DNA of 64,000 bases from Hirsutella rhossiliensis. Lineage: Eukaryota; Ascomycota; Sordariomycetes; Hypocreales; Ophiocordycipitaceae. Shown here piece after piece: positions 3,675-47,049 of this stretch. The DNA is taken from contig NW_025408669.1 in the NCBI RefSeq assembly GCF_020360975.1, positions 5,952,001 through 6,016,000 on the forward strand. The letters are read 5' to 3'. The notes beneath the pieces were generated by a model. The model was not told the DNA's origin and made no database searches. It was given only the letters and a program-made list of their open reading frames with translations. Both the position numbers and the translations under genes were made by a program. Each line of letters opens with the position of its first letter. Within the stretch, counting starts at the first letter, position 1.

Positions 3675-4275
3675 ATGAGCGACGGCTCTGATCCCTTTGC
3701 CGGCGGCAGTCCTGACGACAAGATCAACGCCTGGCTCGAGCTGACCAAGAACGATGGCGGCCACCTCAAAGCCGGCGTAAGCAACTGTCCCCTCCCCCCC
3801 CAACCTTTCAAGTCCGTCCTTTCTCTAACAACCTCCCCTTCTTTCATCTTGCACCCCCCCCCCTCAGGATTGGATGGCCGCCCTTGCCCCCTACCTCCGC
3901 GTCCAATCCACCTCCCCCTCCATGCCCCATCCCTCCGTCACCTTCACCTACACCGTCCAGTCAGACCACTGCAACCGGCTGCAGAGCCTCCACGGCGGCG
4001 CCGCCGCCACCCTCTTCGACTTTTGCACCACCATGCCCTTAGCCCTCGTCAACCGCCCGGGCTTCTGGCAGTTTCTCGGCGTCACCCGCACCCTCAACGT
4101 TACCTACTTTCGCCCGGCCCGCGCCGGCGAAGAGGTCCTCATAGAGTGCCAGATCCTTCAGATTGGCAAGAGGCTCACTTCCCTGCGTGGCGTCATGACG
4201 AGGAAGTCCGACGGCCAGATTCTGTCCATTTGCGAACATGGCAAGGTGAATATCGATCCCGAGCCTAACTTATAG
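3675..4275 (+). CDS. Hotdog-fold thioesterase (4HBT/PaaI-like, ACOT13 type)
   Basis: Two exons, 3675-3776 and 3868-4275, joined in phase 0 by a GTAAGC...CTCAG intron, giving about 169 residues. The second exon carries the hotdog signature LHGGAAATLFD followed by a hydrophobic helix, as in PaaI/ACOT13-type acyl-CoA thioesterases, where the HGG segment and a downstream Asp line the active site. The family hydrolyses acyl-CoA or related thioesters; the substrate here is unknown. The ATG is chosen because it opens the only frame that splices into the conserved exon (context AGCCATGAGC). No targeting peptide is evident. The F-box gene lies tail to tail 145 bp downstream. Confidence 0.85.
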
Positions 4276-4420
4276 ATCAAGACGGCCAGGACCCCGAGGG
4301 GGCGGTACAAGCAAAGCCAACATGTATAATTCTTCTGGACGCTACAACGAGGTAGAGGCGGCTCGAGTATAATAAACCGCCACGGGTGCGACGCGCTCAA
4401 GCTTGCCCAGGTCAGGTATA

Positions 4421-6295: not shown

Positions 6296-6995
6296 GTTGT
6301 GAGGCGGCGTTGTCCACAGGCCGCCCACGCGATGATGGAGTAATACTTTGCTTTTGCCGGCCAGGCCGCCGACAGGTTTGAATCGATGAGCTCTATGGAT
6401 GAAGAGCCGCGGGGACGGATGGTAATTGATGAGTGGTGAAGCCAAATAAACGGTAGCGTCGGACTTTATGCCTTCGGTTTCTCCAGCTCCGACGGCACTA
6501 ATAACATTCACGCCTCGCGCGTGGGACGTGCGGGAGTATCTTACTCACACAGTGCAGAGGGCGGAGTACCCGGTTTCAGTGGAGATCAAAACTCGACGCT
6601 CTCTCTCTCTATACAAGATGAAACCGAATGCAAATTCACCGCTTCAGTCTTTGTCATTCAATCATAAATCCAAGAGGAAACAGCGACGCGCCAAGCCAAA
6701 GACCTTGCTTCTCTCGTCACGTCCTCATCATTTGTCTCATGGATCCAGAATCTCCCGAGTCTAGAGTTCCAACCGTCAACGGCATCAACGCCCCCAAGCC
6801 TGTCTCAAGACGTCGCAGCTGCATGCACTCAAGTATTGGCCACCGTCAATGCAATCCCGCCAGATCCAGAGCGGTGCCCGTCATGCTGCTTCGGCACATG
6901 TAACAAAGGAAAATGGCCCATCCCTTTCAATGCTTGTCCAAATCGATATTCCCACTTCTTGCCTTGCCCTTTGCACGAGATCCCATCTCCCTCGC

Positions 6996-9900
6996 TCATA
7001 TGACCGTGCCGCCCGCATTGAGCTTGATGCAATTGCTCATAAGATTTGCCGCCTCGTGAAGCAGTTCCCACTGGGTATTTTCAAACGAGTCCTTGAGCGT
7101 CATCAGCAGCGCCGTGTTCTGGTTGATGCCCCTCATGGACTGCAGCTCGCTCGGGTCCGCGATGCTGCCGAACCGCAGCAAATAACTTCGCATCTCTTGC
7201 TGGACTTGATGAGGCGACGTCGCGTGCCTGGCATCTGTGCCCGGCCCCTCCAGAGCGAACCCGTAGCACCAAACGATGAGCGCTGCAAAGTAGAGCACCC
7301 AAGGCCGGTTCATCAACACGTCGTATCGCGCCTCGTAGGGCCTGTCTGGATACTGCCTCCCCACGGGCAATCCGCCATCCGCCCCAGGCAACAGCACCGA
7401 GCTTAGGAACTTGAGGGCATAGAACGTCGAGTCTCTGGCCCCGGCCGATGGCGCCCAGGTGTCCCTGGTCCGGCGCTGGGCCGCACTGAGCTCTTGCGGA
7501 GCGATGGTGCGCCCGAGGAGTCGCTTGGCGCGAGCGAATATCTGGCAGTTCACAACATCGGCGTGCATGGCCATGTGCGCAAGGTGATGCAAGACTGTGC
7601 GGCTCGCGAAAACAATGTTGAATTCGTGCTTGACCGCATCGTGCCGGTACGGGTCGCTCGATGGCTCGCCTTGCTCAAGCGCCCGGTCAAAGTTGGCTTT
7701 CCACGAGTCGTACGCCTCGGTCAGCGTGGCTCGCCACTTGTCGCGGCCGCACAAGGCGTGAGTGACTCCCCCACCGAGGATGTTGACCTGTAGATCTCTT
7801 TGGTGCATGTGATATGTCACACTGAGCAGCCCGGCCATGAGGACCGTCCGCCCAAATGACGTCGTCCGCACCTCCTGGTGGCTCAAGGTGCGTTTCAGGC
7901 CCTCCAGAAAGGACATCGGCTTGAAGCCCTGGGAGAGAAGATTGGACTCGATCCGGGCCACCTGGGCGCTGCTCTTGGCTCGCCACAGTGACTCGTCGCA
8001 CGGCAGTGCCAGTCGCAGCTCGTGAGCAGCCATGACCCCGGAATGGCCAAACATGGTAGCGTGAGTCGTGTCGACAACAAACGCCGCAAACGCCGCCCGA
8101 CGGGTCGCTTCGCCCACGATCCAGTGACTCCACCATTCCTCGGCTGTCTGCGCTGGACCGCCAGCAAAGGGGTGCTTCGATCCAGATTGGCCGTCTTGAG
8201 GGTTCGGAGGCGAGTCCAGGGTCGACTTTCCGATGAGAGACCGGCCGCGCCGCATCAATGTGATTGTGGTCGCATGGTGAATGTGGGCTCGCTCATGTAG
8301 CTCTCGTGTCGAGTACATCTTTTCGTACAGCTCGAGAAGGATGAGGGCTTGAAAGACCCACAGCTTCGCCGGGGGCCGAAAGCTCCAGTCCATGAAGATT
8401 TCCCATCGTAGATGCCGTGCGAGAAAGTCGGAGATGTTGATGCCGGTTGTTGTCACCTGCTGCTCATGTGTTCTGTCAAGGCCGGCAGCTCCCAAGGCCA
8501 TCATGGCCAGAATAAGTAGATTAGGGGTCTGGTCCGAAGAGAAGGTGGGCTTGTGCAATATGGGCAACTGGTCGCTGAAGTGGTACCAGTAGGAACAGAT
8601 GTACGTTTGCATCATTCTGCGGCTCAAAGGGTGATGGCCTTGGCTGCGGTCTCCTCCGATGATGCTCTCCCTCCGGCGGTCGATCGGGGGCACGTCATTT
8701 TCATGAAAGCGATCCTTTATGAGGTCGAAGAGTTCCTCGCTCTTATCCTCTGAGAGGCTGCCTTGGGGCGCGTTCTGATCGAGCAGATTGTGAACTGCCA
8801 TGACCTGCTGAGGTTCGGGAGGAAAGTACCCTACGGATGCGCTTTCGTCGACGAGACATGGCATAGAGTACTGGTGCCTTTGTAGATCGCCATAACTACA
8901 TCCAAGGTCAGTCGAGACTTGGCATAAGGACGGGCCATTACGTACTTAGGCGCCGCAGCCGGCACCACGGGCCCAGCAGGACAGGCACTGCTGGGCAAGG
9001 CATTAAAAAGGTATGCCATGAAATCCTCGGGCATGCCGACGTAGGGTGACTTGTTCAAAGCCTCGTCGTCTCCAAACACCGGCCCTGCTCTCGGCATAGC
9101 CATCTGGTCGAGGGCCATCATCTCCGAGGGCGCGCCACGGATCGATCTCGGGTATTCGTGTAGCGTAGCCGCGACGTACGGGTGGCTCGGGTCGCGTGAC
9201 GGAGTATTGCCCTGGTTATTGTGATATGGGCCAGGCGTCAAATGCATCGACGACTCGTTTTGCTGGGGGATTGGGGGCGCCGAGGGGTGTGACGTGACGT
9301 TGGTATGGTAGATGGCAGGGCCGGTCTCACGTTGGCCGAAGGCATCGTAGGGCTCCAGGTCGGACTGGACGGAGAGACAGGATTGTGCCGTCGATGAGTC
9401 TTGCGATATGCTGTGTGGGGGGATACGCTCATTTGCGGCATCGGGCCCGTAGCCCTCGGCGACACTGGCAGACGGAGTCCCGCCATGATGTCCTGCTGGT
9501 GGCGTGTTGCTCACAGGCGTGTACGGGCTGTACTCCGACTGTTCCTGGGGCGACTGGTCTCGCTGGGGAGGTCGATGTGCGAGGCCGCCTCCGGCGTCAA
9601 ATTGTCTGCCCTCGGGGGAAGTGGTCGAGGCAGAAGCAGAAGTCGCATGCACAGGATGGTTTGTTGTTGAATCTCTTTGGCCGAGCTGGGGGCCTCGTGC
9701 GGCGTGACGGTCCATGTGCCGCCTCAGCAGGTCCCCGCGAACAAAAGAACGAGGGCAATCAGGGTACTCGCAGCGGAAAGTCTGGTTCGAGTTGTGATTC
9801 AGCTGGTGACGATGTCTGCGCCATGTCAGTCGCGCCAAGGGATGCAGGGTACGCAGGAACGCGGCGTAGCGGGTGAAGCTTGGCCGCTTACAGGTGCTCT

Positions 9901-23036: not shown

Positions 23037-24379
23037 GGCGCTGGAGATTTCATTCGGGATGACGATGAAGATGGGAAGGAATGGGAGAAAAGGCGGCGGA
23101 GGCGGAGACGCTTTGAGTGGCTTTGGTGGGGCGTTAAGAATTACAAGGCACTTTTCAGGGGTCTTGCCGCACAATTACCTACTACCTAGGGCGCCCTGGC
23201 TTGTAGTCTTTGTGTACCTCACATATTATTCTTAGTCCGTGATCTGTTTCCTCTCTGCGGCCTCGCTCTCCCCTATAAGCCGCTGTAATACATCGGTCCT
23301 TCTTTCTTCTTCTTTTTATCCGGAACCCTGGGGTTTACCCGGAAGCCTTACTTCCGGCTAGGGTTTTGGCATGATTGGCTTTTTATCATGATGCGAATCA
23401 TGACTTGATATAAACTATAGAATCAACAACCGCCTTCGACTCGCACTTGGAGGAAGGACGGTGAGATACCATCATACGCAAACCCATCCTGGGATGGTAC
23501 AAGCTCCTCTCAACACTGTTGACTGATTATACATACGCTAGGGCGGGGATTGGACCGTGCCTGGCCTATACCGTCCGTTTTAGATGCCAACGACTCAGTC
23601 CCCGACGTAATGGGCCATCACGATACTACGAGGCGCTATGTAGTTGGCATAAGTTGCATCGTTTTTTATTGTCTGCAGCACCCATCGTAGTTAGCTGCTA
23701 TCCCTCTATGGCAGTGTTGAACTGCGAAATCTAAACCCCATGGTTGTTGAAACACAAAGCTCCTGCGCATCCAAGACTCAGCGTGTACGGGACCCCTACT
23801 CGGCGGTCGACTGCTCGGCGGCTGGCGGCCTGGCAGCTAACTGCTCGTTGGAGGCTTTGATGCTTTCGCAAGCTGCTGTGATGGTCTCCTGTTCAAGGCA
23901 AACACTCTCTATGTCCGATGCTAATGATACGGATCCGCCTTCACGGGCGCAGTATCTGTTGATTTCGCTTCCATCCACCAGAACATCTGTTATCTTCGTT
24001 TTTGCATTCCGCCACCTGCTTTTCGGGCCCATTTTCGGCTTTGAGACTATCGCAAGCCAACTGACGAGTCTCCCAGGAACCGCACTCCTTTGAAACAGCC
24101 ATGAATACCAAATATTCCCACAGGACTCGGTGATGACACGGGCATACTGAATCCTTTTTGTCATAAACTCTGCAAAGAACCTGCTCGGTCATTTTTGCAA
24201 CGGCCAAAGGGACAGCGATGTCCGGTATAGCGCATTTTCATCCCTGTCCGTCAGCTGTGCTGCTTAGTTTAGTATATTGCCCCGTTGCGATTTGCCACGG
24301 AACAAGCGCAGCTGCCACCTCCTCGCAATGCTTTCGGCCATAACAAGCCTCAAGTGACGACACAAGAGTACGAGCAGGC
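23037..24379. other. Intergenic between SAP30-like and HET genes
   Basis: On the minus strand, two overlapping frames at 23796-24207 look weakly coding: MTEQVLCRVYDKKDSVCPC... from the ATG at about 24195, and an acidic stretch near 23800-23960 (SLASDIESVCLEQETITAA). They are in different frames, and no splice pair joins them cleanly. A frameshifted small gene is possible. The remainder is unassigned. Confidence 0.25.
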
Positions 24380-26266
24380 ATGTCGCTCGAGTACCGGCCG
24401 TTGCGAGCCGACGAGACACGGCTTCTGACCCTGTCGAGATGTCATGCGACGAGCCTCTGTGACGCTGGCCCCGGTCTCGACGACGTGAGCCTCGCCTTCA
24501 CGACCGTCTCCATTACAGCCGTCTCCATCCCGCCCTTTACTGCCCTCTCCTATGTCTGGGGAGATCCATCAGACACCGTGCAGCTCGAATACTCAGGTGG
24601 CTCACTATGTGTGACGCGCAACCTCCATGCCATCTTGGGCTGCCTCGCATCCTCGCTGGCCCTCGACCATGAGCCCGCTCACCTCTGGATCGATGCCATT
24701 TGCATCGACCAAGCCAGACTAGACGAGCGCGCGGCCCAGGTCCCTCACATGCGACAAATCTACTCGCGCGCCCGCTCTGTTCTCGTCTTCCTCGCCACCA
24801 CATCGGCCCCATATGAGCTTGGCTTGAGCTTTCTCGGCCAGGCCGCCCAGCACCCGACGTGGCATTACGAGCCGTCACTGGAGCCGCGCATCACGGTGCA
24901 GTCGGGGCTGGATGCTCATTCAGAGGCTCTTCGCGATTCCGTCATTGCCATCTTCGCCGCGCCCTGGTGGACCAGGGTCTGGACTGTGCAGGAGTTTGTG
25001 CTCGCGGGGCGCGTCACTTTTCGCTGTGGGCGTGCCGGAATTGACGGAGAGAGCATGCTAGCTGCGTCTGAGAACCTGAAAGACCACGAGAGTGGGTGCT
25101 GTTGGGCGGCCAGGCATGAGGCAGACGGAAGCTCGAGAGGGTATATCCACATCCCTAGCACCCCAAACGCCGGCATGTCACTGTTCCAGGCGATAATAAG
25201 GCTGGACCAGTTGCAAGTCATGTGCAATGCCGAAGCCTACGACGCGAGAAGCCTGCTGGGGGCACTCTCCATGTTTCGCACGCGCGAGTGCACCGATCCT
25301 CGCGACCACATCTTTGGCATGCTTGGGCTGGATCTGGGAGACCAAGATCAAAGCCTGCGGTCCCGGGTGCGAGTCGATTACACTGCTCCCGCGACCGAAC
25401 TGTTTCAAGACGTGGCCACTGCCATGATTCAAACGTCGGGAAACTTGGACGTGCTGAGCCATGTCTGCCAATACTCCAGTCTACGAGGCCGACTCGAAGG
25501 ACTGCCGAGTTGGGCTCCGGACTGGACCGCGACTGTCGACGAAACCTTCCATCACCGGTACTCGGAGCGCACCCGGCGCACCGTCCTGGCGAAGGCATCA
25601 GGGGACTCGAAATCAGCGTGGAATGTCGTCAGCCCGGGTAGAGTTGCGACGAAGGCCCTTTTCCTTGGACAGATATCGATGACTGCTTCTGGATATCCAT
25701 CCTCAAACTCATCTTTACCCGGCCAGCACGTCCTAGACAATTGGCGAGAGGTCTTTGAATGTCAACGGGAAGAGGGCTCGAAAGAGGAGCGCGCCAATCA
25801 CACGGACTTTGATTTTGGGCTGGTGATATCAGGGGGTCTCGCCCGTGCCGATTGGCACCAAGAGTCCGGCAGGCATGAAGAAGCGTTCCAAGGCTGGCGC
25901 GCATGGTTCACCGACGAAGACGCGCAGAATCTGCGAGAAGGCATTAGACAAGATGTCCGAGGGTTTGACGATCTCGCAAGGTCGATGACTCTCGAGAGGC
26001 GCATGTTTAGGACAGGTAATGGACGAGTCGGCTTCGGGCCAGAGTCTGCAGAGGGGGGAGATGTCGTGGTGTTGATGCCCGGCGGCAGAGTGCCGTACGT
26101 TCTAAGAAACGCTCATGGGTCAGGGGAGGGCCTAGACGGCGAGAAGAAAGTATTTAGTCTACTAGGCGACGCTTTTGTGCACGGGGCGATGCTAGGCGAA
26201 GCAGTTGCAGCACTCGACGGCAGGGACCGGGTTGATGTCGGATGGGAAGACATCTCACTTGTCTAA
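24380..26266 (+). CDS. Heterokaryon-incompatibility (HET) domain protein
   Basis: A single intact exon of 628 residues. The HET domain lies at about residues 50-210: FTALSYVWGDP, LWIDAICIDQ with MRQIYSRARSVLVFL, and WWTRVWTVQEFVLA are its three conserved blocks. The C-terminal about 400 residues lack a repeat or NACHT domain and have the usual layout of stand-alone HET proteins. HET domains trigger cell death in vegetative incompatibility and related defence; the partner is unknown. The ATG at 24380 directly precedes the typical MSLEYRPLRADETRLL start. It lies about 11 kb from the sigma/NLR locus, in the same gene-poor region. Confidence 0.92.
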   Translation: MSLEYRPLRADETRLLTLSRCHATSLCDAGPGLDDVSLAFTTVSITAVSIPPFTALSYVWGDPSDTVQLEYSGGSLCVTRNLHAILGCLASSLALDHEPAHLWIDAICIDQARLDERAAQVPHMRQIYSRARSVLVFLATTSAPYELGLSFLGQAAQHPTWHYEPSLEPRITVQSGLDAHSEALRDSVIAIFAAPWWTRVWTVQEFVLAGRVTFRCGRAGIDGESMLAASENLKDHESGCCWAARHEADGSSRGYIHIPSTPNAGMSLFQAIIRLDQLQVMCNAEAYDARSLLGALSMFRTRECTDPRDHIFGMLGLDLGDQDQSLRSRVRVDYTAPATELFQDVATAMIQTSGNLDVLSHVCQYSSLRGRLEGLPSWAPDWTATVDETFHHRYSERTRRTVLAKASGDSKSAWNVVSPGRVATKALFLGQISMTASGYPSSNSSLPGQHVLDNWREVFECQREEGSKEERANHTDFDFGLVISGGLARADWHQESGRHEEAFQGWRAWFTDEDAQNLREGIRQDVRGFDDLARSMTLERRMFRTGNGRVGFGPESAEGGDVVVLMPGGRVPYVLRNAHGSGEGLDGEKKVFSLLGDAFVHGAMLGEAVAALDGRDRVDVGWEDISLV

Positions 26267-35224: not shown

Positions 35225-35905
35225 CTATTTGTTTTTGGGCCAGAGGGAATTTCCCTTAGACGGCTCAGACGCAAAGTGATAGCTAGCGCCGTGGCTGTCG
35301 CCATTGATCTGGGTTCCGCCGTTACAGTTCGGCTGGCTCCCTGTGCCGCCGTGGTAGAGCTGAGTTCCAGAGCCGCTGTTGTACAGCCTAACACCTTCTC
35401 TAGAGTCCGGCTTCAAAGACGGTGGCAACTTCTTGACCTCGTTGAGCATCTCCTGCACCTTGTTGACATGCTCTCGGCTGACAAAGGGCTCTCTGATGAC
35501 ATCGCCGAGGCGGCTGAGCACGCTGCTCATGACCTGCTCGGGTCTTTGGGCGCCTCCCTCCACAGCCTCGCGGTACCTTTCGAGTCTCAGGGTAGCGTCT
35601 CCAATTGTGACGACTGCGACAAGGGCCTTCTCGAGGTCTTCAGCCTGGCGACGGCAGTAGTTAGCCACCTGCTGGATCTCGACGAGTTTCTTCTCGTCTT
35701 CTTGCCCGGCCGACTCGACACGCTCCGTCAAGCAGTCGAAGAGCCTAGAGACTTCGGGGACACGCCGGGCGACGACGTAGAAGGCCGGGGGCAGGCCGGA
35801 TGTGCCCTCAAGTTTGCTGGCCAACCCTGCGTTGACGTTGAACGCATTGCGAGTGTTGTTGAGAGACATCTCAGTGTACAGCTTGGTCATACTGTTGTCC
35901 GACAT
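35225..35905 (-). CDS. SesA-like effector with C-terminal sigma amyloid motif (copy 1)
   Basis: A single exon of 226 residues. Residues about 35-165 form a helical domain that lines up with the second SesA-like protein of this window: SGLPPAFYVVARRVPEV here against SGLPPSFRDVGSRLPLV there, then a Cys-containing helix (CRRQAEDLEKALVAV) and RLERYREAV. Residues 172-211 are a Gly/Asn/Gln-rich sigma-type motif (YNSGSGTQLYHGGTGSQ). In the fungal model, SesA-type proteins are cell-death effectors switched on when an NLR with the same motif templates amyloid folding. The domain is divergent and lacks the hydrophobic N-terminal helix of copy 2. A TATATAA box lies at about 35976-35982. Head to head with copy 2, with a copia element between. 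Confidence 0.7.
   Translation of the reverse strand: MSDNSMTKLYTEMSLNNTRNAFNVNAGLASKLEGTSGLPPAFYVVARRVPEVSRLFDCLTERVESAGQEDEKKLVEIQQVANYCRRQAEDLEKALVAVVTIGDATLRLERYREAVEGGAQRPEQVMSSVLSRLGDVIREPFVSREHVNKVQEMLNEVKKLPPSLKPDSREGVRLYNSGSGTQLYHGGTGSQPNCNGGTQINGDSHGASYHFASEPSKGNSLWPKNK
35273..35392 (-). other. Sigma amyloid signalling motif of SesA-like copy 1
   Basis: Encodes a repeat of the form N-x-G-S-G-T-Q-L-Y ... G-T-G-S-Q ... G-G-T-Q-I-N. It aligns without gaps in the first half with the motifs at 43197-43313 and 46816-46926. Confidence 0.65.
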
Positions 35906-36087
35906 GTTTGATGATGGGTCGTCTCGTCAGAAACAGAAGAAAACAAAGACGGTTGAAGCTGGCGATGGTGTAGCATTATATACCTGCTCGGGCCCGACGA
36001 TCAACGTTTTGTTGCAGAAATTCCGCGCAACAAGCCTTGGCAAGGCGGCAGAGCTCTGTAGTCTGCCTTGAGGTGCAGGCTGTTTCT

Positions 36088-36447
36088 ATGCGTTCAGCTC
36101 TTTCAGCCATTTGCCTTTTTCTGCTCCTCATTGGCTGCCCAGTACGTGAACGCCTCCCTCTCTTTGCCTCGCTGCAGCATCCGCCTACAAGTATGCTGAC
36201 ATTGGCCGCCTCGATGCTTGACTACCAAGCCGAGGCCGGTTGCATCTTGAGCACTGTTCTTTTGCCTTCTCGCGAGAATTGTGCTGAGAAGCTTTGTGGT
36301 GTTGAGGCGACACAGCGCTCGGTTTGTGCTCCATCTATCCGTTGTTACATGAGCCCTCCCTCTCGGGCTGAGGCCACTGGCAGTCCCTGGCCCCCTCGGC
36401 CAGCTGCGAGTCGCATGTTAGTGTATGCAGTTTGTAAGTTGGTGTAG
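36088..36447 (+). CDS. Possible small secreted Cys-rich protein (weak)
   Basis: An ATG frame of 119 residues with a signal-like start (MRSALSAICLFLLLIGCPV) and eight cysteines in all. It lies in the ancestral spacer between the two SesA-like genes and overlaps the promoter side of copy 1. No homology is recognised and composition is borderline. It may be a chance frame. Confidence 0.25.
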   Translation: MRSALSAICLFLLLIGCPVRERLPLFASLQHPPTSMLTLAASMLDYQAEAGCILSTVLLPSRENCAEKLCGVEATQRSVCAPSIRCYMSPPSRAEATGSPWPPRPAASRMLVYAVCKLV

Positions 36448-36758
36448 CACTGCATATGTGCTGACCAGGTGCCGCTCATCGCCACCCCTACATGACTTGT
36501 ACTGTACTGCAAGCTGCGAAATGGGACATCCCGCCGCAATAATTTCTCTCGCTCTCTCTTCTTTTCTTCCCGCTGGACACCATCTTGTACACACGTGGGC
36601 TTGACAAGCCTGGCACGACGTAGTCAGACCGCCCAGGGCACTTGCGTACAAGTCGTCCTATATATGCATTAACATATCTTGGACGCCTTGTAATGTTGAA
36701 AGTTGCCGCACCCTGTACTGGCCACATCGTTGAGCCCGCTCTCCTGTGCAAGTACGAG

Positions 36759-36763
36759 TACTC
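36759..36763. other. Target-site duplication, left
   Basis: TACTC directly before the left LTR, identical to 42542-42546. Confidence 0.9.
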
Positions 36764-37092
36764 TGTCACGAATAGTAGGGCCAAATAGGCATAAAGTTAG
36801 TATTTCAGAATCGTCCGGTGCTGCTCCATTTTCCCTTCTGTTCTCTGTGTCTGTTCCTTCCTTCCTCGCCCTTTTATTCCTGGCCACAATCTCGATCTTC
36901 TCCGTCTGCCTCACACCTCCGTCAATCGTCGGGGTGGCTGCGCCCACTTTTCCTAGGACACCGTCCCTGACGGCCGGGCTGACTGTCTCAGCCGACGCAT
37001 CAGAAAGCAGGCCTGACGTCCTGGCTGACTGTCTCAGCAGGAGCATCAGCAAGCAGGGAACCTCTAGAGGTCCTACGAGCGGCTTCGCAACA
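36764..37092 (-). repeat. Copia 3' LTR (left copy)
   Basis: 329 bp, TGT...ACA ends (TGTCACGAAT ... CTTCGCAACA). It differs from the right copy only by a one-base T-run indel and a small change in a CCCAC/CCCT tract. Confidence 0.95.
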
Positions 37093-37124
37093 CACCCCCT
37101 TAGTGACGGCCAACCAGGACGTTG

Positions 37125-40100
37125 CTAGAGATGCGGGAATGTCGTGCACGACTCATCTCTCGCCCTGGGCCTCTTTATGGCTATCACGGGATGTATCACA
37201 TCTCGTAATTCTTCAAGCTTGGCCTCTCTACTCAATCGTTCCTTTATCTCCTCAAGCCCAACCATTCGTTGGAACTCGAGGAGCTTCTGCCTCGGCAATG
37301 CCTTCGTCAAGCCATCTGCTCGCATATGTGTCGTAGGCACCCAATTGACCAATTCGAGCATCTTGAACCTCTTGTCGTAGCCAATGCTGATGAATGTCTA
37401 CGTGCCTCAGTCTCGTCGAGAGCTTCGTACTCTCCTCTTTGAGAAGTCTGATCGTCTGGGCATTGTCGCATTCCACTACCAACGGAGAGGAATTCGGATG
37501 TCCAGGGAATTCAACAGACGGCTCAGGAAGATCGCCTCCTTTGACGCCTCTGAGAGAGCAAGCAACTCAGCCTCCGTGCTTGACGTCGTGACTGTCGCTT
37601 GCTTTGACGCTCTCCACGCCACTGATCCTCCAAATAGGGTCATGACGTAGCCTTGTGAGCTCTTCCTGTCGACTGAATTGTCTGCGAACGATGCGTCACT
37701 CGAACAGAGGAACAGCTCCGCTTCCTTCGATCCTCCTCCGAGACGTAACGCGTACGATCTCGTTGCAAAGAGGAAGAGGATAACTCTGTCTGCTGCTTTC
37801 TGGTGCTTCTCATCGGGATTGTGGTTATGTCTTGCCAGTCGGGATACGGCAAACGCAATATCTGGTCGCGTTGAAATTGCTGAGAAGAGCACGGAACCAA
37901 CCTTCTGGAGATACTGATGTTTTTCCTTTCATTTGCTTGGCTTGTAGCTGGCAGGAGCTCTTCGTCAGAGATCATTGGCGTGTCTGGGAGCTTGAGAGAC
38001 TCAGGGCGTTGTCGTTGTTTAACAGGAACTTATACGCGATCTTGTCGATATAGGCGTCTTGCGTCAGCCAAAGCGTCTTCCTTTGACGATCGCGGAGGAT
38101 ACGAATCCCCAAGAACCAGCGAGGTTCTCCAAGCCGAGTTAGGTTGATCTTTTTCTGTAGTCCCCGAGTAGCTTCTTCGACGACCCTTCGTCCTCCTTCC
38201 GGAATGCCCAGATGATGTCATCAACGTAGAAGAAGACGGTCACCGCTCCCTTCACCATGACACACGGCTCCTGGGAACTTTTCTGAATCCCAGTTCCTCT
38301 AGAGACGACGTAAGCATCTGTTGCCAGAGGAGCGGCGAGCGGCGTAGTCCGTAGAGAGCTTTTCTCAGGCGTAGGACTTTCCCCCTCTTCTGGAACCCCG
38401 GTGGCATCCTCATGAAGATAACTTCTTCGTCGTCGAGGGGGGCATGAACAAAAGCATTGACTGCATCCATCTGTTCCAATTCGAGGTCGTGTTCCGCGGC
38501 AATGGCCATTAGCGTACGAAACGACATTCCTGCGAGGGTAGTCGCTCGAGTAGGCAGGTCCCCCTTTTCTTGCTGATTGCCACAGACAACGAGGCGAGCT
38601 TTGCACTTTTGGAGATTGCCGTGCTTATCAGTCTTATAGATGAATACCCACTTGCAACCGAGGACCTGCTTTCCAGCAGCCTTCGTCCAGAAGACCTCGT
38701 CAAACGAGCCCATTTCCGCATGTGAGGCCAGGTGGTCTCTCTGAGCCTGGGTGAATTCCTCTCTATACGGGTGTTTTTCTAGTTGCTTCTGCGTCTGTGG
38801 AGGCTCGGGTAGGTCTCTCTTGTGGACTTTTGCGCTTTTCGGTCTGAACAACCTTCCTGCTGTGAAGGCTCCGTGCACCCCGTCCTCAATTGGCACCGGG
38901 ACGAAGTCGGCAAAACGGTCGATGTATGACTGATCCAGCTCTGGTTGATCAAATGGTTCCAGAGCTTTCAAACGCGATTCTTTCATCAGGCCTTCAAGGT
39001 CGGCTTGAAATGCCGCTCCTCCAAGAGAGCAACCCACCCCTCAGGGTGAGCCTCCTCTTCAGGATCATCCTGAACCCGGACTCTCTTCTGAGCTTGCAAC
39101 GGCTCCAGATCGACTTGGAAAGGGCTTTACCACCACCCCTTAGGGTCAGCGTATGGAAAGTGAACCGAAAAGACTCCATGTGGTTCTTCTTCCTCCGGGT
39201 CAGAAGCTGGTGGCGTTAGGTATGCATCTTCCAGCTCCCGCGCTCTCCCGTAGTCTTCTTTTCCTGCTCTTCGCTTTGTTGTTGTCCCTGCTCCTCGTCT
39301 TCGTTATCTTCAGCCATTCTGATGTCATCATCCTCGAAGTCCTCGATATCAGTGTCTTCATCGGTCTCTTCGTCAAGGATGGCCTGATTCGCCGTCTGGC
39401 CTTCCGGGATTTCAATCTGTTGGATCATCTCTCCGATGCTCGCAGGCAGCGGCATCCGCTCGCCTCCTCCTTCGAAGAACGTATACTCGTCAAAGACAAC
39501 ATCTCTCGTTGCAATGACCTTCTTCAAGAGAGGGACCCAAATTAGGAAGATATTTGTAGACTTATAACCGATGAGGTATCCGATGTGAGCTCTCGGGTCG
39601 AGCTTCCACCTCTTCCTCAATCCAAGCTGTGCATTTGCTGTCATTGCGTAGGCTCGGCAGCCGTACGCACGAAGATGTGAGCTGATTTTTCTTCCTGTGA
39701 ACAAGTCAATGGGAGACTTCCAGTCGGCTTCTCCTTCGTTAGCGTTTTCAGCGGCGAATCGAGGCTCTCTTGGCGTTCGGTTTCGAGGTAGCAGGCTGCT
39801 TCGATGATCTCTTTCCATAGTGAATGCGGTAGTCGAGAGGCAATCCTCATGACTCTCGCTCTCTCGGTAGAGATCCTCCTGACCTCTCGGCTCCACCATT
39901 CTGGTCCTGAGTGTTGGAAGCTGACATCGCCTTTGTCATCCCTTTCTTCCTCATCCAGGCTGAGATTTTCTTCGTGAAGAGCTCGCCGTCAGAGCGCACG
40001 ACATTCGTCTTAAATCCAAAGCGAGCGAGCATAAAGGAGGAAAAGTCTTTCAAGACAGCTCCGTGTTCCTTTGCCTTGTAGGTCTTCATGAAGTAGGAAA

Positions 40101-40991
40101 GACCATTCCAGAGAAGGCGTCTGTGATAAACATCACACGGACGTAGTTCTCGTGGTCTCTCGCAAGGTCGGTCCAGTCTATCCAGATCTCGTAGCACGGC
40201 TTGTCTCTTTCCTCGTCAGGTGGACGGCGGGAGACTTGCCTTCTGACCTTCCCCTGAGCACAGTACTCGCATTCGACGGTTTTCGGCCCTTAATCCGGAC
40301 CCCCCTTTGTAGGCCTAGCTTGTGCAAAGCCATTGGACCAGGGTGACCAAGACGGGCGTGCCAAAGCTTGCCGTCTCCTTGAGAGGCAGGTCGAGGATCT
40401 CTTGAGCCGGCTCTTCGAGCTTTCCTTGTCTCCTTCTTCGATGCCTGGAACGCACTGTTGAAATCCGGGAATTCGGTTTCCACGGGCTGGTATTCAACAA
40501 CAAACTGCTGATATTTCCTCTCGGTGATCCCGATAGTCTGGCCCTTTCGGACTAGCCTCATAGGCTCAGACAGCGTATCCCAAAAGATCTGATCGTCGTC
40601 GATAAGAGTCTGCAAAGAAACCAGGCTCGATGAGAAACCGGGACAGTAGGCAACCTTCTTTAATCGGGTGTTCGGTGGGAGCCGTCAGGCATCGTCGTTG
40701 CGACATTGACTCGCCCGAATCCTTCGATTCGAACGAGAGAGTCACCGGCGACGATAAAGTCATTCTTGGCCTTTTTAAACGATCGGAACCGACTGAGCTT
40801 GTTGTTGATATGAAGAGATGCGCCGCAATCAAGGAGGGTTGAATTCTTAAGCGGATATTCCGATCCCCTTAGGCCAGGGGACTCAGCTGAGAACACGAAA
40901 GCTGGGTTTGCTGAGCCCACAAGCCTTCCCCTCATCCTTGGTTGCTATTTCTGCATTTTCTTTCGAATATCTTCAATTCTCCTTTTCAGGA
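37125..40991 (-). pseudogene. Copia pol remnant (protease, integrase, RT, RNase H)
   Basis: Read on the minus strand across several frames. The protease has LLDCGASLHINN near 40820. Integrase has a zinc-binding start (WHARLGHPGPMALHKLG, CEYC near 40265), a DWTD block and a VVRSDGELF block. Reverse transcriptase has KWVFIYKTDKHG, QMDAVNAFVHA, YGLRRSPLLW and the catalytic YVDD at 38216-38227. RNase H has SSDASFADN and SSTEAELLAL. Frame changes near 40240, 39900, 38260 and 37480 and several stops show that no polyprotein can be made from this copy. Confidence 0.85.
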
Positions 40992-41033
40992 CAGGATCGT
41001 CAGCGACTCTCTCGTGTCATCTTGAGATACCTT

Positions 41034-42144
41034 TCAGGGGCGGATTATAGCCCTCTGGTCTGGCTTCTTCGATAACCTGCCAGCAACCCTCGAGCTCGTG
41101 TCCCTTGCGTCTGCAGGCAAGGCAGGGATCTCTTTTGGAATATGGCTCCTTTCAAGGGCTCTCTGTCCAGCTTCTTCTTCTTCGCTGGCGGTACTTCGTC
41201 CGCATCGTCTGCGTCTGCTGCTGCTTTGTCCGCATGAAATGCGCCTCCTCTTTGATAGCACCTCGGGTTTTTCTGCTTCTCTGCTTTCGGCCAGATGCTT
41301 CACATCTCGCACGACTCTCTCAACAGTCCATTGACTCTCCGTCGGAGCTTGGGCTGCAAGAACGGCGGCGACTGCGGCCGTTGCTGCAGCGGCCATCGCG
41401 GCTACTGCAGCTGCTGCCGGATTGTGAACAACGGGGTTAACAGGAGCAGCAGCAGGAGGACCATATCGGTCGAAGTCGAACAGTTTCCCTGGGTAGCCTC
41501 TGATTTTGCGTCGAGTATCCTGCTTCCTTGTTCGTACTGGTAGCCTAGGGAGTTATCCAGAGGCCTAATCAATGTGGCAACGTCTCTAAGCCACTGGCCC
41601 GTTTGGGCCTCCATTAGCTTATACTTATCGGCGTCAGACATTATGTCTTCCCATTTGTCGATCCAGGAGTCTAGATCCTTTGCGTTAAATCTCTTTAGGT
41701 GGGTCGAATACTTGGTCCTTGTGAGATTCATCATATATCCCGCTTCAGGGGCCGTCGACGCTTCTAGACGTTTAAACCACTGACGAATTGGAAGGTCTTC
41801 GTCGAAGGCGTTCTGCTTCGAGGATACCACTGATTCCTGCATCGCTATGCGAGCGTTGGTAACCAGTTTAGTCTCATCTTTATACTCTTTCCTCCTGATA
41901 TCATAGTCCCGCATCGCGTCGTTATAATCTCTCTTCTGAACGGCAGAGAGGTCAGCGAGTCTAACAGCATCAGGGCGTAGTGGCGGAATTCAGGTCGCTC
42001 AGGAGGTTCGAGGGGGTCCTCGTTGGTAAAGATCAGGCTATGGATCGTCTTGTCAGTTCGATTCCTGAGCTCCCTTCTCCATTTGTCCCAGTTGCTTGGT
42101 CCTGAGAGGATCGCTCGTGCAGGGGCGGCAGAAGACTTCGACAT
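41034..42144 (-). pseudogene. Copia gag remnant
   Basis: Starts at ATG 42144 (MSKSSAAPARAILSGPSNWD), with the Gag-typical WDKWRRELRNR. A one-base loss near 41960 shifts frame before the AVQKRDYND... continuation. An intact-looking block follows (QWFKRLEASTAPEAGYM, SWIDKWEDIMSDADKY), and after a further shift a CCHC knuckle (CLACRRKGHELEGC) lies near 41090-41130. It would package element RNA if intact. Confidence 0.8.
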
Positions 42145-42214
42145 CTCGTTGATTTGAGAGTGGTTTTCGGTCGGAATGGAAGTTACAGGAACGTAGTTCC
42201 TCCCGGCTCATGAC

Positions 42215-42541
42215 TGTCACGAATAGTAGGGCCAAATAGGCATAAAGTTAGTATTTCAGAATCGTCCGGTGCTGCTCCATTTTCCCTTCTGTTCTCTGTG
42301 TCTGTTCCTTCCTTCCTCGCCCTTTATTCCTGGCCACAATCTCGATCTTCTCCGTCTGCCTCACACCTCCGTCAATCGTCGGGGTGGCTGCGCCCTTTTT
42401 CCTAGGACACCGTCCCTGACGGCCGGGCTGACTGTCTCAGCCGACGCATCAGAAAGCAGGCCTGACGTCCTGGCTGACTGTCTCAGCAGGAGCATCAGCA
42501 AGCAGGGAACCTCTAGAGGTCCTACGAGCGGCTTCGCAACA
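42215..42541 (-). repeat. Copia 5' LTR (right copy)
   Basis: 327 bp, nearly identical to 36764-37092. Its outer end lies 154 bp before the start codon of the second SesA-like gene. As the 5' LTR of a minus-strand element, it drives element transcription away from that gene. Confidence 0.95.
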
Positions 42542-42546
42542 TACTC
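42542..42546. other. Target-site duplication, right
   Basis: TACTC directly after the right LTR, identical to 36759-36763. Confidence 0.9.
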
Positions 42547-42695
42547 CGTTCAGGAATGTACGTGCGTAGCTTTGGATGCTTTGATAGGCTCGCCGTATGG
42601 TGAAGGAGGAGACAACTTCAACATCCTCTTTCTTGTTTCTCCAACCCAGCCCCCCCTTCTCCGTTGCCGCCTAAAAACGCCACAAAAACCTCACC

Positions 42696-43325
42696 ATGTC
42701 AGGAGCTGAAGTGATAGGCATCATCTCGGGAATCATCGCTATACTCGACGTCTCTCACAAAGTCTACAGAGCCGTCGAGGACGCCTCGGGCCTGCCGCCG
42801 TCCTTTCGTGACGTGGGCTCGCGGCTCCCGCTCGTCCAGGATAGCCTCCGGGCGGCATACAGGGGCCTGGCCGAGGACCACGTTGCGCCCGAATGCTCCG
42901 GCGCCCTCAAGACGGTCCTCGAAGGCTGCAAACTCAAGGCCGCCGGGCTCGAGAGAATATTCCGGGCTACCATCCCGCCCGTCGGGGCGTCGAGGACGAC
43001 CAAATATCTCAAAGCCCTCAGGACAATCCCCAACGCCACAAAGGTCGAGGGCCTGATGGATGGCATCATGAGCGATCTGCATGTCCTGACGGCGAATCAT
43101 GCCGTCAAGACGGCGACGAGAGCGCAGATAATGAAGCTCATGGCGGCGGTTGACATGGATAACGGTGGCGGCTTCTATGAGGACAAGTCGTCGGTAGTCT
43201 TGCATAATCTAGGATCGGGATCACAGTTTGTTCACAGGGGGGTTGGGAACCAGAACATGACGAGCGGAACGGGATTGCAGTTCAACGGCGCCATGACCGG
43301 CGACTTTTATCTTGCTCGAGGCTAG
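42696..43325 (+). CDS. SesA-like effector with C-terminal sigma amyloid motif (copy 2)
   Basis: A single exon of 209 residues. It has the typical SesA/NLR-associated start (MSGAEVIGIISGIIAILDVS), a hydrophobic helix and a four-helix-like domain to about residue 150 (SGLPPSFRDVGSRLPLVQDS, CKLKAAGLERIF, TTKYLKALRTI). Residues 168-206 are the sigma motif (HNLGSGSQFVHRGVGNQN). Known SesA proteins pair with a sigma-bearing NLR encoded next door; here the NLR is tail to tail. The ATG at 42696 (TCACCATG) follows a pyrimidine-rich leader that lies wholly between the copia LTR and the gene, so the core promoter may survive the insertion. The frame is intact. Confidence 0.85.
   Translation: MSGAEVIGIISGIIAILDVSHKVYRAVEDASGLPPSFRDVGSRLPLVQDSLRAAYRGLAEDHVAPECSGALKTVLEGCKLKAAGLERIFRATIPPVGASRTTKYLKALRTIPNATKVEGLMDGIMSDLHVLTANHAVKTATRAQIMKLMAAVDMDNGGGFYEDKSSVVLHNLGSGSQFVHRGVGNQNMTSGTGLQFNGAMTGDFYLARG
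43197..43313 (+). other. Sigma amyloid signalling motif of SesA-like copy 2
   Basis: Encodes N-L-G-S-G-S-Q-F-V ... G-V-G-N-Q-N ... G-T-G-L-Q-F-N, the same two-part pattern as the NLR motif at 46816-46926. Confidence 0.75.
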
Positions 43326-43389
43326 TGTAGAATGGAAATATCGACCTGTTTATTGAGAGACATTTGGGCAGCCTGGGCTTGATAGACTA

Positions 43390-43575
43390 GAGACGAAGCT
43401 TGTTGCGAAGGAAGCTCTGAATGCCAGCATGACCCCCCGCGTAGTCCTCTGCTGTCCATCCACTCGCGTTTTGTGTATTGACATTGGCTCCTTCAGCCAC
43501 CAGTTGGCGCACCGCAACCTCCTTCCCCAGCTGCGCAGCCAGCATCAACGGGGTCCGCCCATCGCGGTCCCGGGC
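43390..43575 (-). pseudogene. Orphaned 3' end of the NLR ankyrin domain
   Basis: Downstream of the TAG the same frame stays open and encodes two more ankyrin repeats (RDRDGRTPLMLAAQLGKEV, then NVNTQNASGWTAEDYAGG) before a TAG at 43387-43389. Only 61 bp separate that ancestral stop from the stop of SesA-like copy 2. Confidence 0.8.
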
Positions 43576-46500
43576 CTAGAGATTGGCGCCCTCCATGCCT
43601 AGGACATGGACTGTGTCGGCCTGGGCGACGGAACTTGCTACGGCGTGGTGGAGAGCCGTAAAGCCTCGATCGTCTGCCGAGCTCAAGTTCACTCTCCTGC
43701 TCTTCGACAGTAGCTGTATCTCGCCGTTGAAGCCTCGACGAGCGGCGAGGTGCAGGGCCCTCAGGTAGTTTCGGTCATGCCCGTCATCCGGTACGCAATG
43801 CTCAAGCAGCACCCGCATCATCGACTGACGCTGCATCTGTGTTGCCAATGCGAGAGCACCTCTCCCCTCGGGGTCCTGGACACTGAGACTAGCTCCCCGT
43901 GATGCGAGTAGGGCGGCTATCTCGTCACAGCCGCCCAGCACGGCATGATACAAAGGAGTCAGCCCGGCCTTATCCCTCACATCAACGTCAACTCCCCGGT
44001 CGACAAGAAAGCGCACTGCCGCGAGGCTTCCCCTGTTGGAAGCCCGGTGCAGCGCCGTTGTGCCCCGGTCGTCAGCGGCGCCCGGACTGGCTCCGTGCTC
44101 GCACAGGAGCCAGGCCACGGAAAGATCGCGGCATTTCAAGGCCAGCTCAAGGGCATTTGGAATGTTCTTGCCCTCAAAAGTCAGGTCCGCCGTATTGGTG
44201 ACCAAGAGCCAAACTATGGCCCTATCTCCGTTCTTGATGGCGTAGAAGAGAGCCGGCCAGCCTTTGTCATTTCGCTCATCCGGCCGGGCTCCTCTGTTCA
44301 GCAGCGCCCAGACAAGTTTCTGGTTTCTGAACTTTACCGCCTCGATCAGCGGGGTCGAACCATCCTTCGTCCTTATGTTAACTTCTGCCCCGTGTTCGGC
44401 GAGCAGCTGCACCGTGTCAACGTCTTGTCTCTCGACTGCGTCCATCAGGGGAGTCCATTCATCCTTGGCCGAGGGACGATTCAGGTCCACCCCTCTCCAC
44501 AACAGGCGCTTCATCAGATAACGAGCATGGCTCTCGACGGCTTGTCTAAGCAATCCGTCTGGGGTTCCTGAACGAGCCGTCTTCCCCACGCCTCCCCCGA
44601 CCACGTCAGGCCCACTGCAAAACACATGTCTCAACGAAGTGCAGTCCTCGTAGCTCTCGGCGTTCACATCGACCTGATTCTTGACAAATATGTCAGCAAT
44701 GGACGTAGGACCATACTTGATGGCCGACGTCAAGGGACTCAGTCCCTCGTTGCCCGGAATGTCGAATCTCGCGCCGCTCTTAACCAAGTCTTGCACGATA
44801 TCAGCACCGTGGCTAGTCGACCCCATGAGAGCTTTGTGTAGTGGTGTATCGCCAGCTCTATCCTGCATATTCAAATCTGCAGAGTTTCGAATGAGTAGTT
44901 TCAGGAGTTTCCGCCGGCCGTACCTCACGGCCCAGTGTACAGCAGTTTGGCCGTCACGACACTTTGCGTTCACGTCGACGCCGATTTTGATGAGACGATT
45001 CGCCCAGGATGGGATGTTGTAATGCATGGCGGCGTGTAGGCCGGTCATGCCATCCAGACCACGGTCCTTGGTCTCATCGATATGACGAAATGCCCTCGTT
45101 AGCTTGGAGCTGTCTTTCAGGAACTTGAGAACCAAGGCGTCGGTCCCGGGGTCAATTTTCTGGCCAAGGCAGCCGAGATGGGTGCACCAATTACGGGCTG
45201 CATATCGCAGCAGCGAAGTCTCCACGTCTTGGTCGTCGACTAATAGAGAAGTCAGGCACGTACTGGTCACTTCCAATTCGGCATCCTGCGAAATGATGCC
45301 GTGTTGTTCCAGATGTTCCTGCACGGACTCGTGGACAAGGCGCAGGCTATCGTTGCTCGTGTCCCTGATGACCAAACCAGCGCAGACGGACAACACCGAG
45401 TCTGTGGATGGCCGATGGTCTTGGAAACGTATTCCCTTGCTCCTTTGGATGGCAAAGCTATCCCGAATCTGTTCCGCGTTCAAGTCGGATTTTACATGTG
45501 CCACCCAAGTAAGAACGTGTCTTGCTAGACTGCTCTGAAACTCGGGTTTCTTGGTTATTTGCTGAATCGACGCCTCGAATGCATTGTGTGAGCTGTCGGG
45601 CAGCTGACGCAATGCGGCCATGATGTCGGCAAGAGTCCCCTGCTTGCTCAAGTTGTCCATGTGCAGCCTGGCCAACAGAAAGCTGTACAGAAATGTCAGG
45701 CCAGCTATTGTACATGAAAGGGGGCTGGACTGACATCTTGCTCGTCAATGTCACTCTGGTGACTTCTTCGATGACCTCCTGCCGATGGATAGCCGTTGCT
45801 CTCTCGCCGTTGAGGACCGCATTGCTCTGGACTCTACTTCTGACATAGGTCTCTATGTCGCTTTTCTTTGGTTCAATGCGCAGCTGTTGATACGGTCCGG
45901 CCTGCTTGGATGTGAAAAGGACTCTGACGTTGTACGGCATGCCTTTGAGGTCATTCATGATCATCTGGCGCGAGCTTCGGCCGGGGACATCGGGAAAGCT
46001 GTCCAAGTCATCAATGACCAGGTAGACTGTCTTGAGCGTGGCCACTTGGGCGTTGAATAGATGGAGATACTGTGATGAATGGAGTGTAGTCGATCCCTGA
46101 AGTGACATGTTGAACTCGTCCATGACTTCCTGCGCCAGGGTTTCATACCCATGATTTTGAAGGAGCTGTGCCAACAGAGTGGCCCAAATATACTCAGGTG
46201 GTTTGTGGTCTTCTCCTTGGGAATAGAAGTAAATGCAAGCAACGTCATTTCGCCCTCTTATTTCTTCCAATATGGTGTCAACGATGAGGGATCTGGGACA
46301 AAGAACGATCAGCAAGGCCTGTTACATTCCAGGGTAGGAAAGATTAAATGCCAACACGAGAATGGTTTTGCCGGATCCCACTGTTTGGAAGGTCATAGTC
46401 AGCTCGAGGGAGCAAAAACGTGCGGCATGATCCCCTGAGCGGTACCTACGATTTCCGTGTAGCTGCAGAAACCTCGAAGTTGTGGATGGGCTCTTCCAAC

Positions 46501-47049
46501 TCTGAAATACCTTGCTGCTCAGGACCCATCCGCCTGTACCTGGTTCTCGTTGGCTGCAGTACTCGGAGTGGTGGCGGCGGAAGTTCAAGGCCGACAGGTC
46601 CCACTGACCCATCAGCCAGCTGATGACGGGCGTGACTTGAGTTCAGGTTAACTGATACGTTCTTTCCATCTAGTTGAACTCGGGATGAGGCGGGAAAACA
46701 CACGCCTTGACTTGTCAGGCCCATGTCCCACATGGTCGAGGTGCCATAGCGAAGGCATGCCTTGGCCCGTCAGCAACGAAGAACAAGCCGATGGCAGGGC
46801 GGCGAGAGGCTCACAGTTGTAGTAGTAGGCATGCAGGTTGTACTGCACGCCGTTCCCGTAGGCCACGTTTTGGTCTCCATGTCCTTCAGTGACGTACTGA
46901 CTGCCAGACCCTCTGTTGTCCGCCGCAATGTGCGGTCCTTGGGTATTTGAATCGGGCCACGCCATCCTCGAGGTGTTGCTTGACTCACATGTCCATCTGT
47001 CGCTCCACCTTTCAGCGACGGGTCCCCCAAGGCTTAAGAACTGTTGCAT
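43576..47049 (-). CDS. NLR: sigma motif - NACHT - ankyrin repeats, C-terminally truncated
   Basis: Start is the ATG at 47049 or the one at 46965. The sigma motif lies near the N-terminus (RGSGSQYVTEGHGDQN). A linker exon follows (GTGGWVLSSKVFQSWKSPST). Splicing after AAATC to an acceptor near 46380 rebuilds a Walker A, LHGN-LGSGKTIL. Walker B-like TVYLVIDDLDSFPDV, a winged-helix region and about 13-15 ankyrin repeats follow (for example RGTTALHRASNRGSLAAVRF). Clear introns: 45734-45683 (junction rebuilds KIFLLARLH) and one ending at 46293. The exon joining the sigma part to the linker near 46600-46730 is unresolved and may hide a frameshift. An in-frame TAG at 43576-43578 (CAG in a normal repeat) ends the frame 63 codons before the next stop at 43387-43389; the lost part is ankyrin repeats. 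It probably senses non-self and templates the neighbouring effectors. Confidence 0.8.
46816..46926 (-). other. Sigma amyloid signalling motif at the NLR N-terminus
   Basis: Encodes N-R-G-S-G-S-Q-Y-V ... G-H-G-D-Q-N ... G-N-G-V-Q-Y-N, aligned with the C-terminal motifs of both SesA-like proteins. Position before the NACHT domain is the usual place in sigma NLRs. Confidence 0.75.

What the first reader, a model, noticed from the sequence alone, without database searches (positions are those of the whole stretch)
35225..47049. Sigma-type amyloid signalling cluster: NLR plus two SesA-like effectors
Three neighbouring proteins carry the same Gly/Asn/Gln motif (N-x-G-S-G-[S/T]-Q-[L/F/Y] ... G-x-G-x-Q ... 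G-x-x-[T/Q]-[I/F/Y]-N). It is N-terminal on a NACHT-ankyrin NLR and C-terminal on two small SesA-like proteins. Known fungal systems use such motifs to pass an amyloid fold from a ligand-activated NLR to a death effector. Two effector genes with one NLR, in a gene-poor region with a HET gene 11 kb away, make a compact module worth testing.
Basis: partly seen in the sequence, partly recalled or inferred. Interest (0 to 1): 0.9.

Follow-up and report, generated by a model that had tools for sequence, protein, structure and literature searches.

The report
Fungal receptor-effector amyloid signalling cluster
A nematode-parasitic fungus carries a small gene cluster that looks like a known kind of fungal cell-death alarm, in which a receptor protein appears to switch on a death protein through a shared prion-like tag, with a second, oddly polar partner protein whose role is open.

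Summary
The cluster is real and of a known kind: a sigma-type NLR/effector locus, almost certainly from Hirsutella rhossiliensis. E2 (42696-43325, +) is a clear SesA protein with a C-terminal sigma motif. The NLR (47049-43576, -, five exons) is a NACHT-ankyrin protein with the matching motif in exon 1. The pair looks conserved: in 6 of 12 named genomes with an E2 relative, an NLR relative has the same organism name and contig length, twice with consecutive locus tags. E1 (35225-35905, -) is a divergent SesA protein; its tail resembles E2's but is not recognised by a profile of the NLR motif. Its N-terminal helix is the most polar of 44 SesA proteins compared, so I read it as a non-killing partner, not a second executioner. 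The gap between E1 and E2 is a young Copia element about 150 bp before the E2 start codon, and the NLR has an in-frame stop ahead of about its last two ankyrin repeats, so the pathway may be impaired in this strain. Two-sesA loci, three-gene sigma clusters and an ankyrin receptor were published in 2012. Amyloid formation and killing are inferred, not shown.

The parts
35225..35905 (-). E1: SesA-like protein, 226 aa, with a C-terminal sigma-like repeat; N-terminal helix polar
   Evidence: Single ORF, ATG at 35905; Pfam SesA 44.9 bits from profile position 14; one homologue found besides itself, Fusarium oxysporum f. sp. cepae, 36% identity over 81%
35504..35824 (-). SesA domain of E1
   Evidence: Pfam PF17107, residues 35-141 of the ORF
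35261..35395 (-). Sigma-like motif region of E1
   Evidence: Placed by own-genome search; matches E2's motif 73, 0 of 2000 shuffles; not recognised by the NLR-motif profile (4.9 bits)
36764..42541 (-). Copia-type LTR retrotransposon inserted between E1 and E2, its ORFs on the minus strand
   Evidence: LTRs 36764-37092 and 42215-42541 (329 and 327 bases, 326 identities, 1 mismatch, 2 gaps), flanked by TACTC on both sides; minus-strand polyprotein-like ORFs; 'Copia' is my reading of these ORFs, not a database match
42696..43325 (+). E2: SesA protein, 209 aa, with hydrophobic N-terminal helix and C-terminal sigma motif
   Evidence: Pfam SesA 116.8 bits; 39 homologues besides itself; five helices then a low-confidence tail
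42723..43088 (+). SesA domain of E2
   Evidence: Pfam PF17107 1-122 of 122
43203..43304 (+). Sigma motif of E2
   Evidence: NACHT_sigma 22.0-24.8 bits, below cut-off; NLR-relative motif profile 29.6 bits
43576..47049 (-). NLR: sigma motif, NACHT (NPHP3_N) and ankyrin repeats, 1036 aa; exons 47049-46815, 46635-46450, 46380-46356, 46292-45735, 45682-43576
   Evidence: Splice model; the deposited Hirsutella rhossiliensis protein has the same four junctions; Pfam NPHP3_N and Ank
46816..46932 (-). Sigma motif region of the NLR (exon 1)
   Evidence: Own-genome place; NLR-relative motif profile 51.0 bits
43387..43578 (-). In-frame TAG at 43576-43578 and 62 further codons in the same frame, resembling the ends of NLR relatives
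   Evidence: ends of Monosporascus and Hypoxylon relatives printed

Best explanation
This is a sigma-type amyloid-signalling locus. Inferred mechanism: a ligand bound by the ankyrin repeats makes the NACHT NLR oligomerise. Its clustered N-terminal sigma motifs adopt a cross-beta fold and template the C-terminal sigma motif of E2. E2's SesA helical bundle then opens and its hydrophobic N-terminal helix enters a membrane, killing the hyphal compartment. E1 shares the sigma-type tail, closest to E2's, but lacks a hydrophobic first helix. I read it as a modulator that co-polymerises with E2 (buffer, relay or non-killing partner), not as a second executioner. Shown here by sequence: domains, motif matching, inferred linkage, the helix difference. 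Inferred from published systems: polymerisation, templating, membrane damage, death.
Confidence: 0.62

Rival explanations
1. E1 and E2 are both full death effectors triggered by the same NLR; E1 kills by a route that needs no hydrophobic first helix.
For: Both carry SesA and a C-terminal sigma-type tail. Two adjacent sesA copies per locus and NLRs with two effectors are published (PMC3321046, PMC5485727; passages). The Fusarium relative of E1 keeps a hydrophobic helix (1.72).
Against: E1's helix 1 is the most polar of 44, no hydrophobic stretch (mean hydropathy 1.3 or more over 19 residues) was found upstream of its ATG, and its tail is not recognised by the NLR-motif profile.
Confidence: 0.22
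2. The locus is a decaying module in this strain: an old sigma pathway on its way out, with no working signal today.
For: In-frame stop in the NLR ahead of about its last two ankyrin repeats; Copia element about 150 bp before the E2 start; in the canonical sigma cluster on C1 an in-frame stop parts the SesB hydrolase from its tail and about 277 bases part the two halves of the SesA tail; a second NLR of this family on C6 looks broken.
Against: E1 and E2 ORFs are whole; the NLR is open over motif, NACHT and most ankyrin repeats; the sequence after the stop still resembles relatives, so the stop looks recent. The C1 SesA gap could be an intron; not resolved.
Confidence: 0.3
3. The shared Gly/Asn/Gln tails are only low-complexity segments that look alike by composition.
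For: Short, biased segments; Pfam sigma scores below cut-off in all three window proteins; the pair test across species was negative; E1's ungapped match to the NLR motif is reached by 306 of 20000 shuffles.
Against: Composition-preserving shuffles never reach the E2/NLR score (0 of 20000); a profile from NLR relatives finds 27 of 41 SesA-type proteins at E<0.01, in their tails.
Confidence: 0.05

Closest known systems
ses locus of Nectria haematococca (sesA, sesB, het-eN; sigma element), Daskalov et al. 2012, PMC3321046 (passages)
   Same: NACHT-ankyrin NLR with the motif in a 5' region set off by an intron, adjacent SesA effector with C-terminal motif, three-fold GxGxQ-type repeats
   Different: Here two SesA-like genes and no SesB seen at the locus; one SesA has a polar first helix; the motif is a variant that Pfam's sigma profile scores below its cut-off; a retrotransposon splits the locus
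Loci with two adjacent sesA copies, noted in the same 2012 paper
   Same: Two SesA genes beside one NLR
   Different: I saw only the sentence, not those sequences, so cannot say whether one copy also has a polar helix
HET-S/HET-s and NWD2 of Podospora anserina (PMC3531502, passages)
   Same: Receptor motif, C-terminal motif on a helical-bundle effector, membrane-inserting N-terminal segment; a killing and a non-killing partner
   Different: HET-S and HET-s are 96% identical and differ in motif family from this locus; E1 and E2 are distant paralogues at one locus
HELLP/SBP/PNT1 (PP motif) of Chaetomium globosum (PMC5485727, passages)
   Same: One NLR, two effectors sharing its motif
   Different: PP motif, an NB-ARC-TPR receptor (architecture from PMC12881547, passage, given for the Podospora PNT1), and a second effector of another kind (SBP, recalled as SesB-like)

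Membership tests
Sigma-type NLR amyloid-signalling locus | NLR with NACHT or NB-ARC and repeats, no N-terminal effector domain | tested here: met
   NPHP3_N plus ankyrin repeats, no other Pfam domain than a weak NACHT_sigma match ahead of them
Sigma-type NLR amyloid-signalling locus | Three-fold GxGxQ/GGTQN-type repeat on NLR N-terminus and effector C-terminus | tested here: met
   NLR and E2 by eye and by NLR-relative profile (51.0 and 29.6 bits). E1 shows the pattern by eye but is not recognised by that profile (4.9 bits)
Sigma-type NLR amyloid-signalling locus | Match to Pfam NACHT_sigma | tested here: inconclusive
   E2 22.0 bits, E 1.8e-4, NLR 14.7 bits, E 0.033, both below the 27.6 cut-off; E1 none. 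22 of 28 E2-family members match at E<=0.1; 7 of 40 rows carry PF17106
Sigma-type NLR amyloid-signalling locus | Effector gene adjacent to the NLR gene | tested here: met
Sigma-type NLR amyloid-signalling locus | Motifs form amyloid and cross-seed | not testable with these tools
   Needs peptides and cells
SesA (PF17107) | Profile match above cut-off | tested here: met
   E1 44.9, E2 116.8, cut-off 26.3 bits
HeLo/MLKL-type membrane-killing bundle (E2) | Hydrophobic N-terminal helix | tested here: met
   1.84 mean hydropathy over 19 residues
HeLo/MLKL-type membrane-killing bundle (E1) | Hydrophobic N-terminal helix | tested here: not met
   -0.25, the lowest of 44 compared
HeLo/MLKL-type membrane-killing bundle (E1, E2) | Four-helix-bundle fold | tested here: inconclusive

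The most novel reading that the evidence does not exclude
E1 is a natural non-killing partner fixed beside its killer: a SesA protein that kept the sigma-type polymerising tail but replaced the membrane-inserting first helix by a polar one. By co-polymerising with E2 it would set the threshold of, or relay, an NLR-gated death signal, a paralogue version of the killing/non-killing relation known between HET-S and HET-s.
Probability: 0.25. Interest if true: 0.7.

Novelty: new member of a known kind. Interest (0 to 1): 0.45.

Why it matters
Evidence that the sigma motif propagates the sigma element is called indirect in a 2021 review (PMC7889193, passage). This locus offers a compact receptor/effector pair with relatives in Xylariales and Hypocreales. 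It also offers a built-in contrast between a SesA with and one without a hydrophobic first helix, which would test whether that helix is the killing part. The same genome holds a second, diverged sigma cluster, so cross-talk between two sigma sub-types of one genome can be tested; the 2015 motif survey set sigma aside (PMC4518210, passage). Pfam's sigma profile scores our receptor's motif below cut-off and I see PF17106 in none of the 120 NLR relatives listed, so loci of this sub-type are probably under-counted on the receptor side.

Tried and rejected
Co-evolution of paired motifs: over 7 linked SesA/NLR pairs, matched motifs are not more alike than mismatched (matched sum 427, mean of permutations 433, 3190 of 5040 reach it; the NLR stretch was 90 residues for ours and 70 for the others). 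The within-cluster co-evolution published in 2012 is thus not seen between these loci.

Insulation of the two sigma clusters of this genome: mean local score within C3 67 (82, 73, 46), within C1 77 (84, 122, 26), between 37 over 9 pairs (range 23-53). The ranges overlap and the C1 tails are partial, so this is suggestive only.

A hidden upstream exon for E1's first helix: no 19-residue stretch of mean hydropathy 1.3 or more at 35791-36760, three minus-strand frames.

HET gene as part of the module: 35 HET places in the genome, some of them pieces of one gene; the HET ORF is not among the motif-profile hits; rejected as evidence.

Foldseek gave no PDB match at E<=0.001 for either model. HET-s HeLo did not appear among the rows shown; this excludes nothing.

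Papers: two searches listed no paper on NLRs of Hirsutella rhossiliensis; one search found 80 papers with the name and listed 15, so this is a limited check.
Full report
What is there. The window is part of an 81.8-Mb genome in 40 contigs.

The three genes. E1 (35225-35905, minus) and E2 (42696-43325, plus) are single ORFs. Both match Pfam SesA above its cut-off of 26.3 bits: E1 44.9 bits starting at profile position 14, E2 116.8 bits over the whole profile. The third gene runs from 47049 to 43576 on the minus strand. I modelled four introns (179, 69, 63 and 52 bases); the deposited H. rhossiliensis protein of 914 aa, made by others, has the same four junctions and includes the motif, though it starts 28 residues later. 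The spliced protein reads motif, NACHT of the NPHP3_N type, ankyrin repeats.

Is the motif more than chance? E2 against NLR: ungapped BLOSUM62 score 81; 0 of 20000 composition-preserving shuffles of E2's last 60 residues reach it, the maximum being 56. For E1 the ungapped score is 26, reached by 306 of 20000. I built a profile from the motifs of 28 NLR relatives, chosen by eye out of 44 (P0044-P0087) with ours left out, and searched 1702 sequences (1660 six-frame ORFs of the window and two other loci, 41 SesA-type proteins, the spliced NLR). It gave our NLR ORF 51.0 bits and E2 29.6 bits (E 4.3e-8), found 27 of the 41 SesA-type proteins at E<0.01, but gave E1 4.9 bits (E 2.2) (profile built, search). 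With gaps, E1 matches E2 at 73 (0 of 2000 shuffles) and NLR at 46 (6 of 2000). E1's tail also aligns with that of the one homologue found, from Fusarium oxysporum f. sp. cepae (130). So the motif is firm for E2 and NLR and divergent in E1. Pfam's sigma profile scores E2 22.0 bits, NLR 14.7 and E1 nothing, against a cut-off of 27.6, but matches 22 of 28 E2-family members at E<=0.1. The link to sigma is thus by family.

Conservation. E2 has 39 homologues besides itself at E<=0.001. Linkage is inferred from those labels, not from the DNA. A test of motif co-variation over the 7 pairs was negative (3190 of 5040 permutations reach the observed sum).

State of the locus. A Copia-type element (36764-42541) lies between E1 and E2, with LTRs of 329 and 327 bases (326 identities, 1 mismatch, 2 gaps) and a 5-base duplication TACTC at its two edges. 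The right-hand duplication ends 150 bases before the E2 ATG; without the element E1 and E2 would face away from each other across about 1 kb. The LTR has 32 matches in the genome, the window's own two included, 29 of them at 95% identity or more, some partial, so the family is young. The NLR has an in-frame TAG at 43576-43578; 62 more codons follow in frame and resemble the ends of Monosporascus and Hypoxylon relatives. The deposited model steps over this stop with an extra intron. A sequencing error cannot be excluded.

Elsewhere in the genome. SesA was found at four places: two here, one on C1, one on C2. C1 near 6.033-6.040 Mb (L006) looks like a canonical sigma cluster: a DUF676-type SesB with a strong sigma tail in the next ORF (68.6 bits), a SesA and a NACHT-ankyrin NLR with a partial sigma motif (29.7 bits). 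There an in-frame stop parts the SesB hydrolase from the tail, and the two halves of the SesA tail lie about 277 bases apart; whether that stretch is an insert or an intron I did not resolve. A second NLR of our family on C6 (L008) has the motif (38.2 bits) and ankyrin repeats 41% identical over 395 aligned positions, but by its ORF table it is broken by reading-frame changes and an in-frame stop; no SesA was found on C6.

What is known. Daskalov et al. 2012 (PMC3321046, passages) defined the sigma motif, described het-eN as a NACHT-ankyrin protein whose unnoticed 5' intron hid the motif, reported loci with two adjacent sesA copies, and proposed the templating model. Loquet and Saupe 2017 (PMC5485727, passages) state that PP and sigma NLRs appear to control two effectors. 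A 2021 review calls the evidence for sigma's role indirect (PMC7889193, passages); infrared work that includes the Nectria sigma peptide is in PMC8086366 (passages). This locus is a new member of that kind, with one unusual partner.

Verdict.

Noticed in passing
L006 (G000:C1:6032500-6042400): A second, canonical-looking sigma cluster (SesB-like DUF676 hydrolase, SesA, NACHT-ankyrin NLR). The SesB frame has a stop at L006 2050-2052 between hydrolase and sigma tail, and the two halves of the SesA sigma tail lie about 277 bases apart (insert or intron, not resolved), so at least SesB looks uncoupled from its receptor.
   Followed up: partly
L008 (G000:C6:1206000-1215900), about 4083-7795, +: Second NLR of the window's family with its own sigma motif, apparently broken by reading-frame changes and an in-frame stop (6428-6430); no SesA gene found on that contig.
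   Followed up: partly
L007 (G000:C2:3369000-3378000), 2680-4764, -: A SesA ORF with a Gly/Asn-rich tail directly upstream of an NPHP3_N NACHT ORF on the same strand; may be one SesA-NACHT protein with an intron. Its tail scores no better than shuffles against the window's motifs.
   Followed up: partly
window 43576-43578: The deposited H. rhossiliensis NLR model (P0043) steps over the in-frame stop with an extra intron that removes ankyrin sequence, and lacks a further 22 residues that look wrongly called as intron.
   Followed up: yes
window 36764-42541: Member of a young Copia-type family: 32 LTR matches in the genome, 29 at 95% identity or more.
   Followed up: partly
L006 7010-8977: Long repetitive stretch, open in three minus-strand frames, just after the C1 NLR's ankyrin repeats; not analysed.
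   Followed up: no
window 24344-26266, +: HET-domain gene (94.4 bits), one of 35 HET places in the genome.
   Followed up: partly
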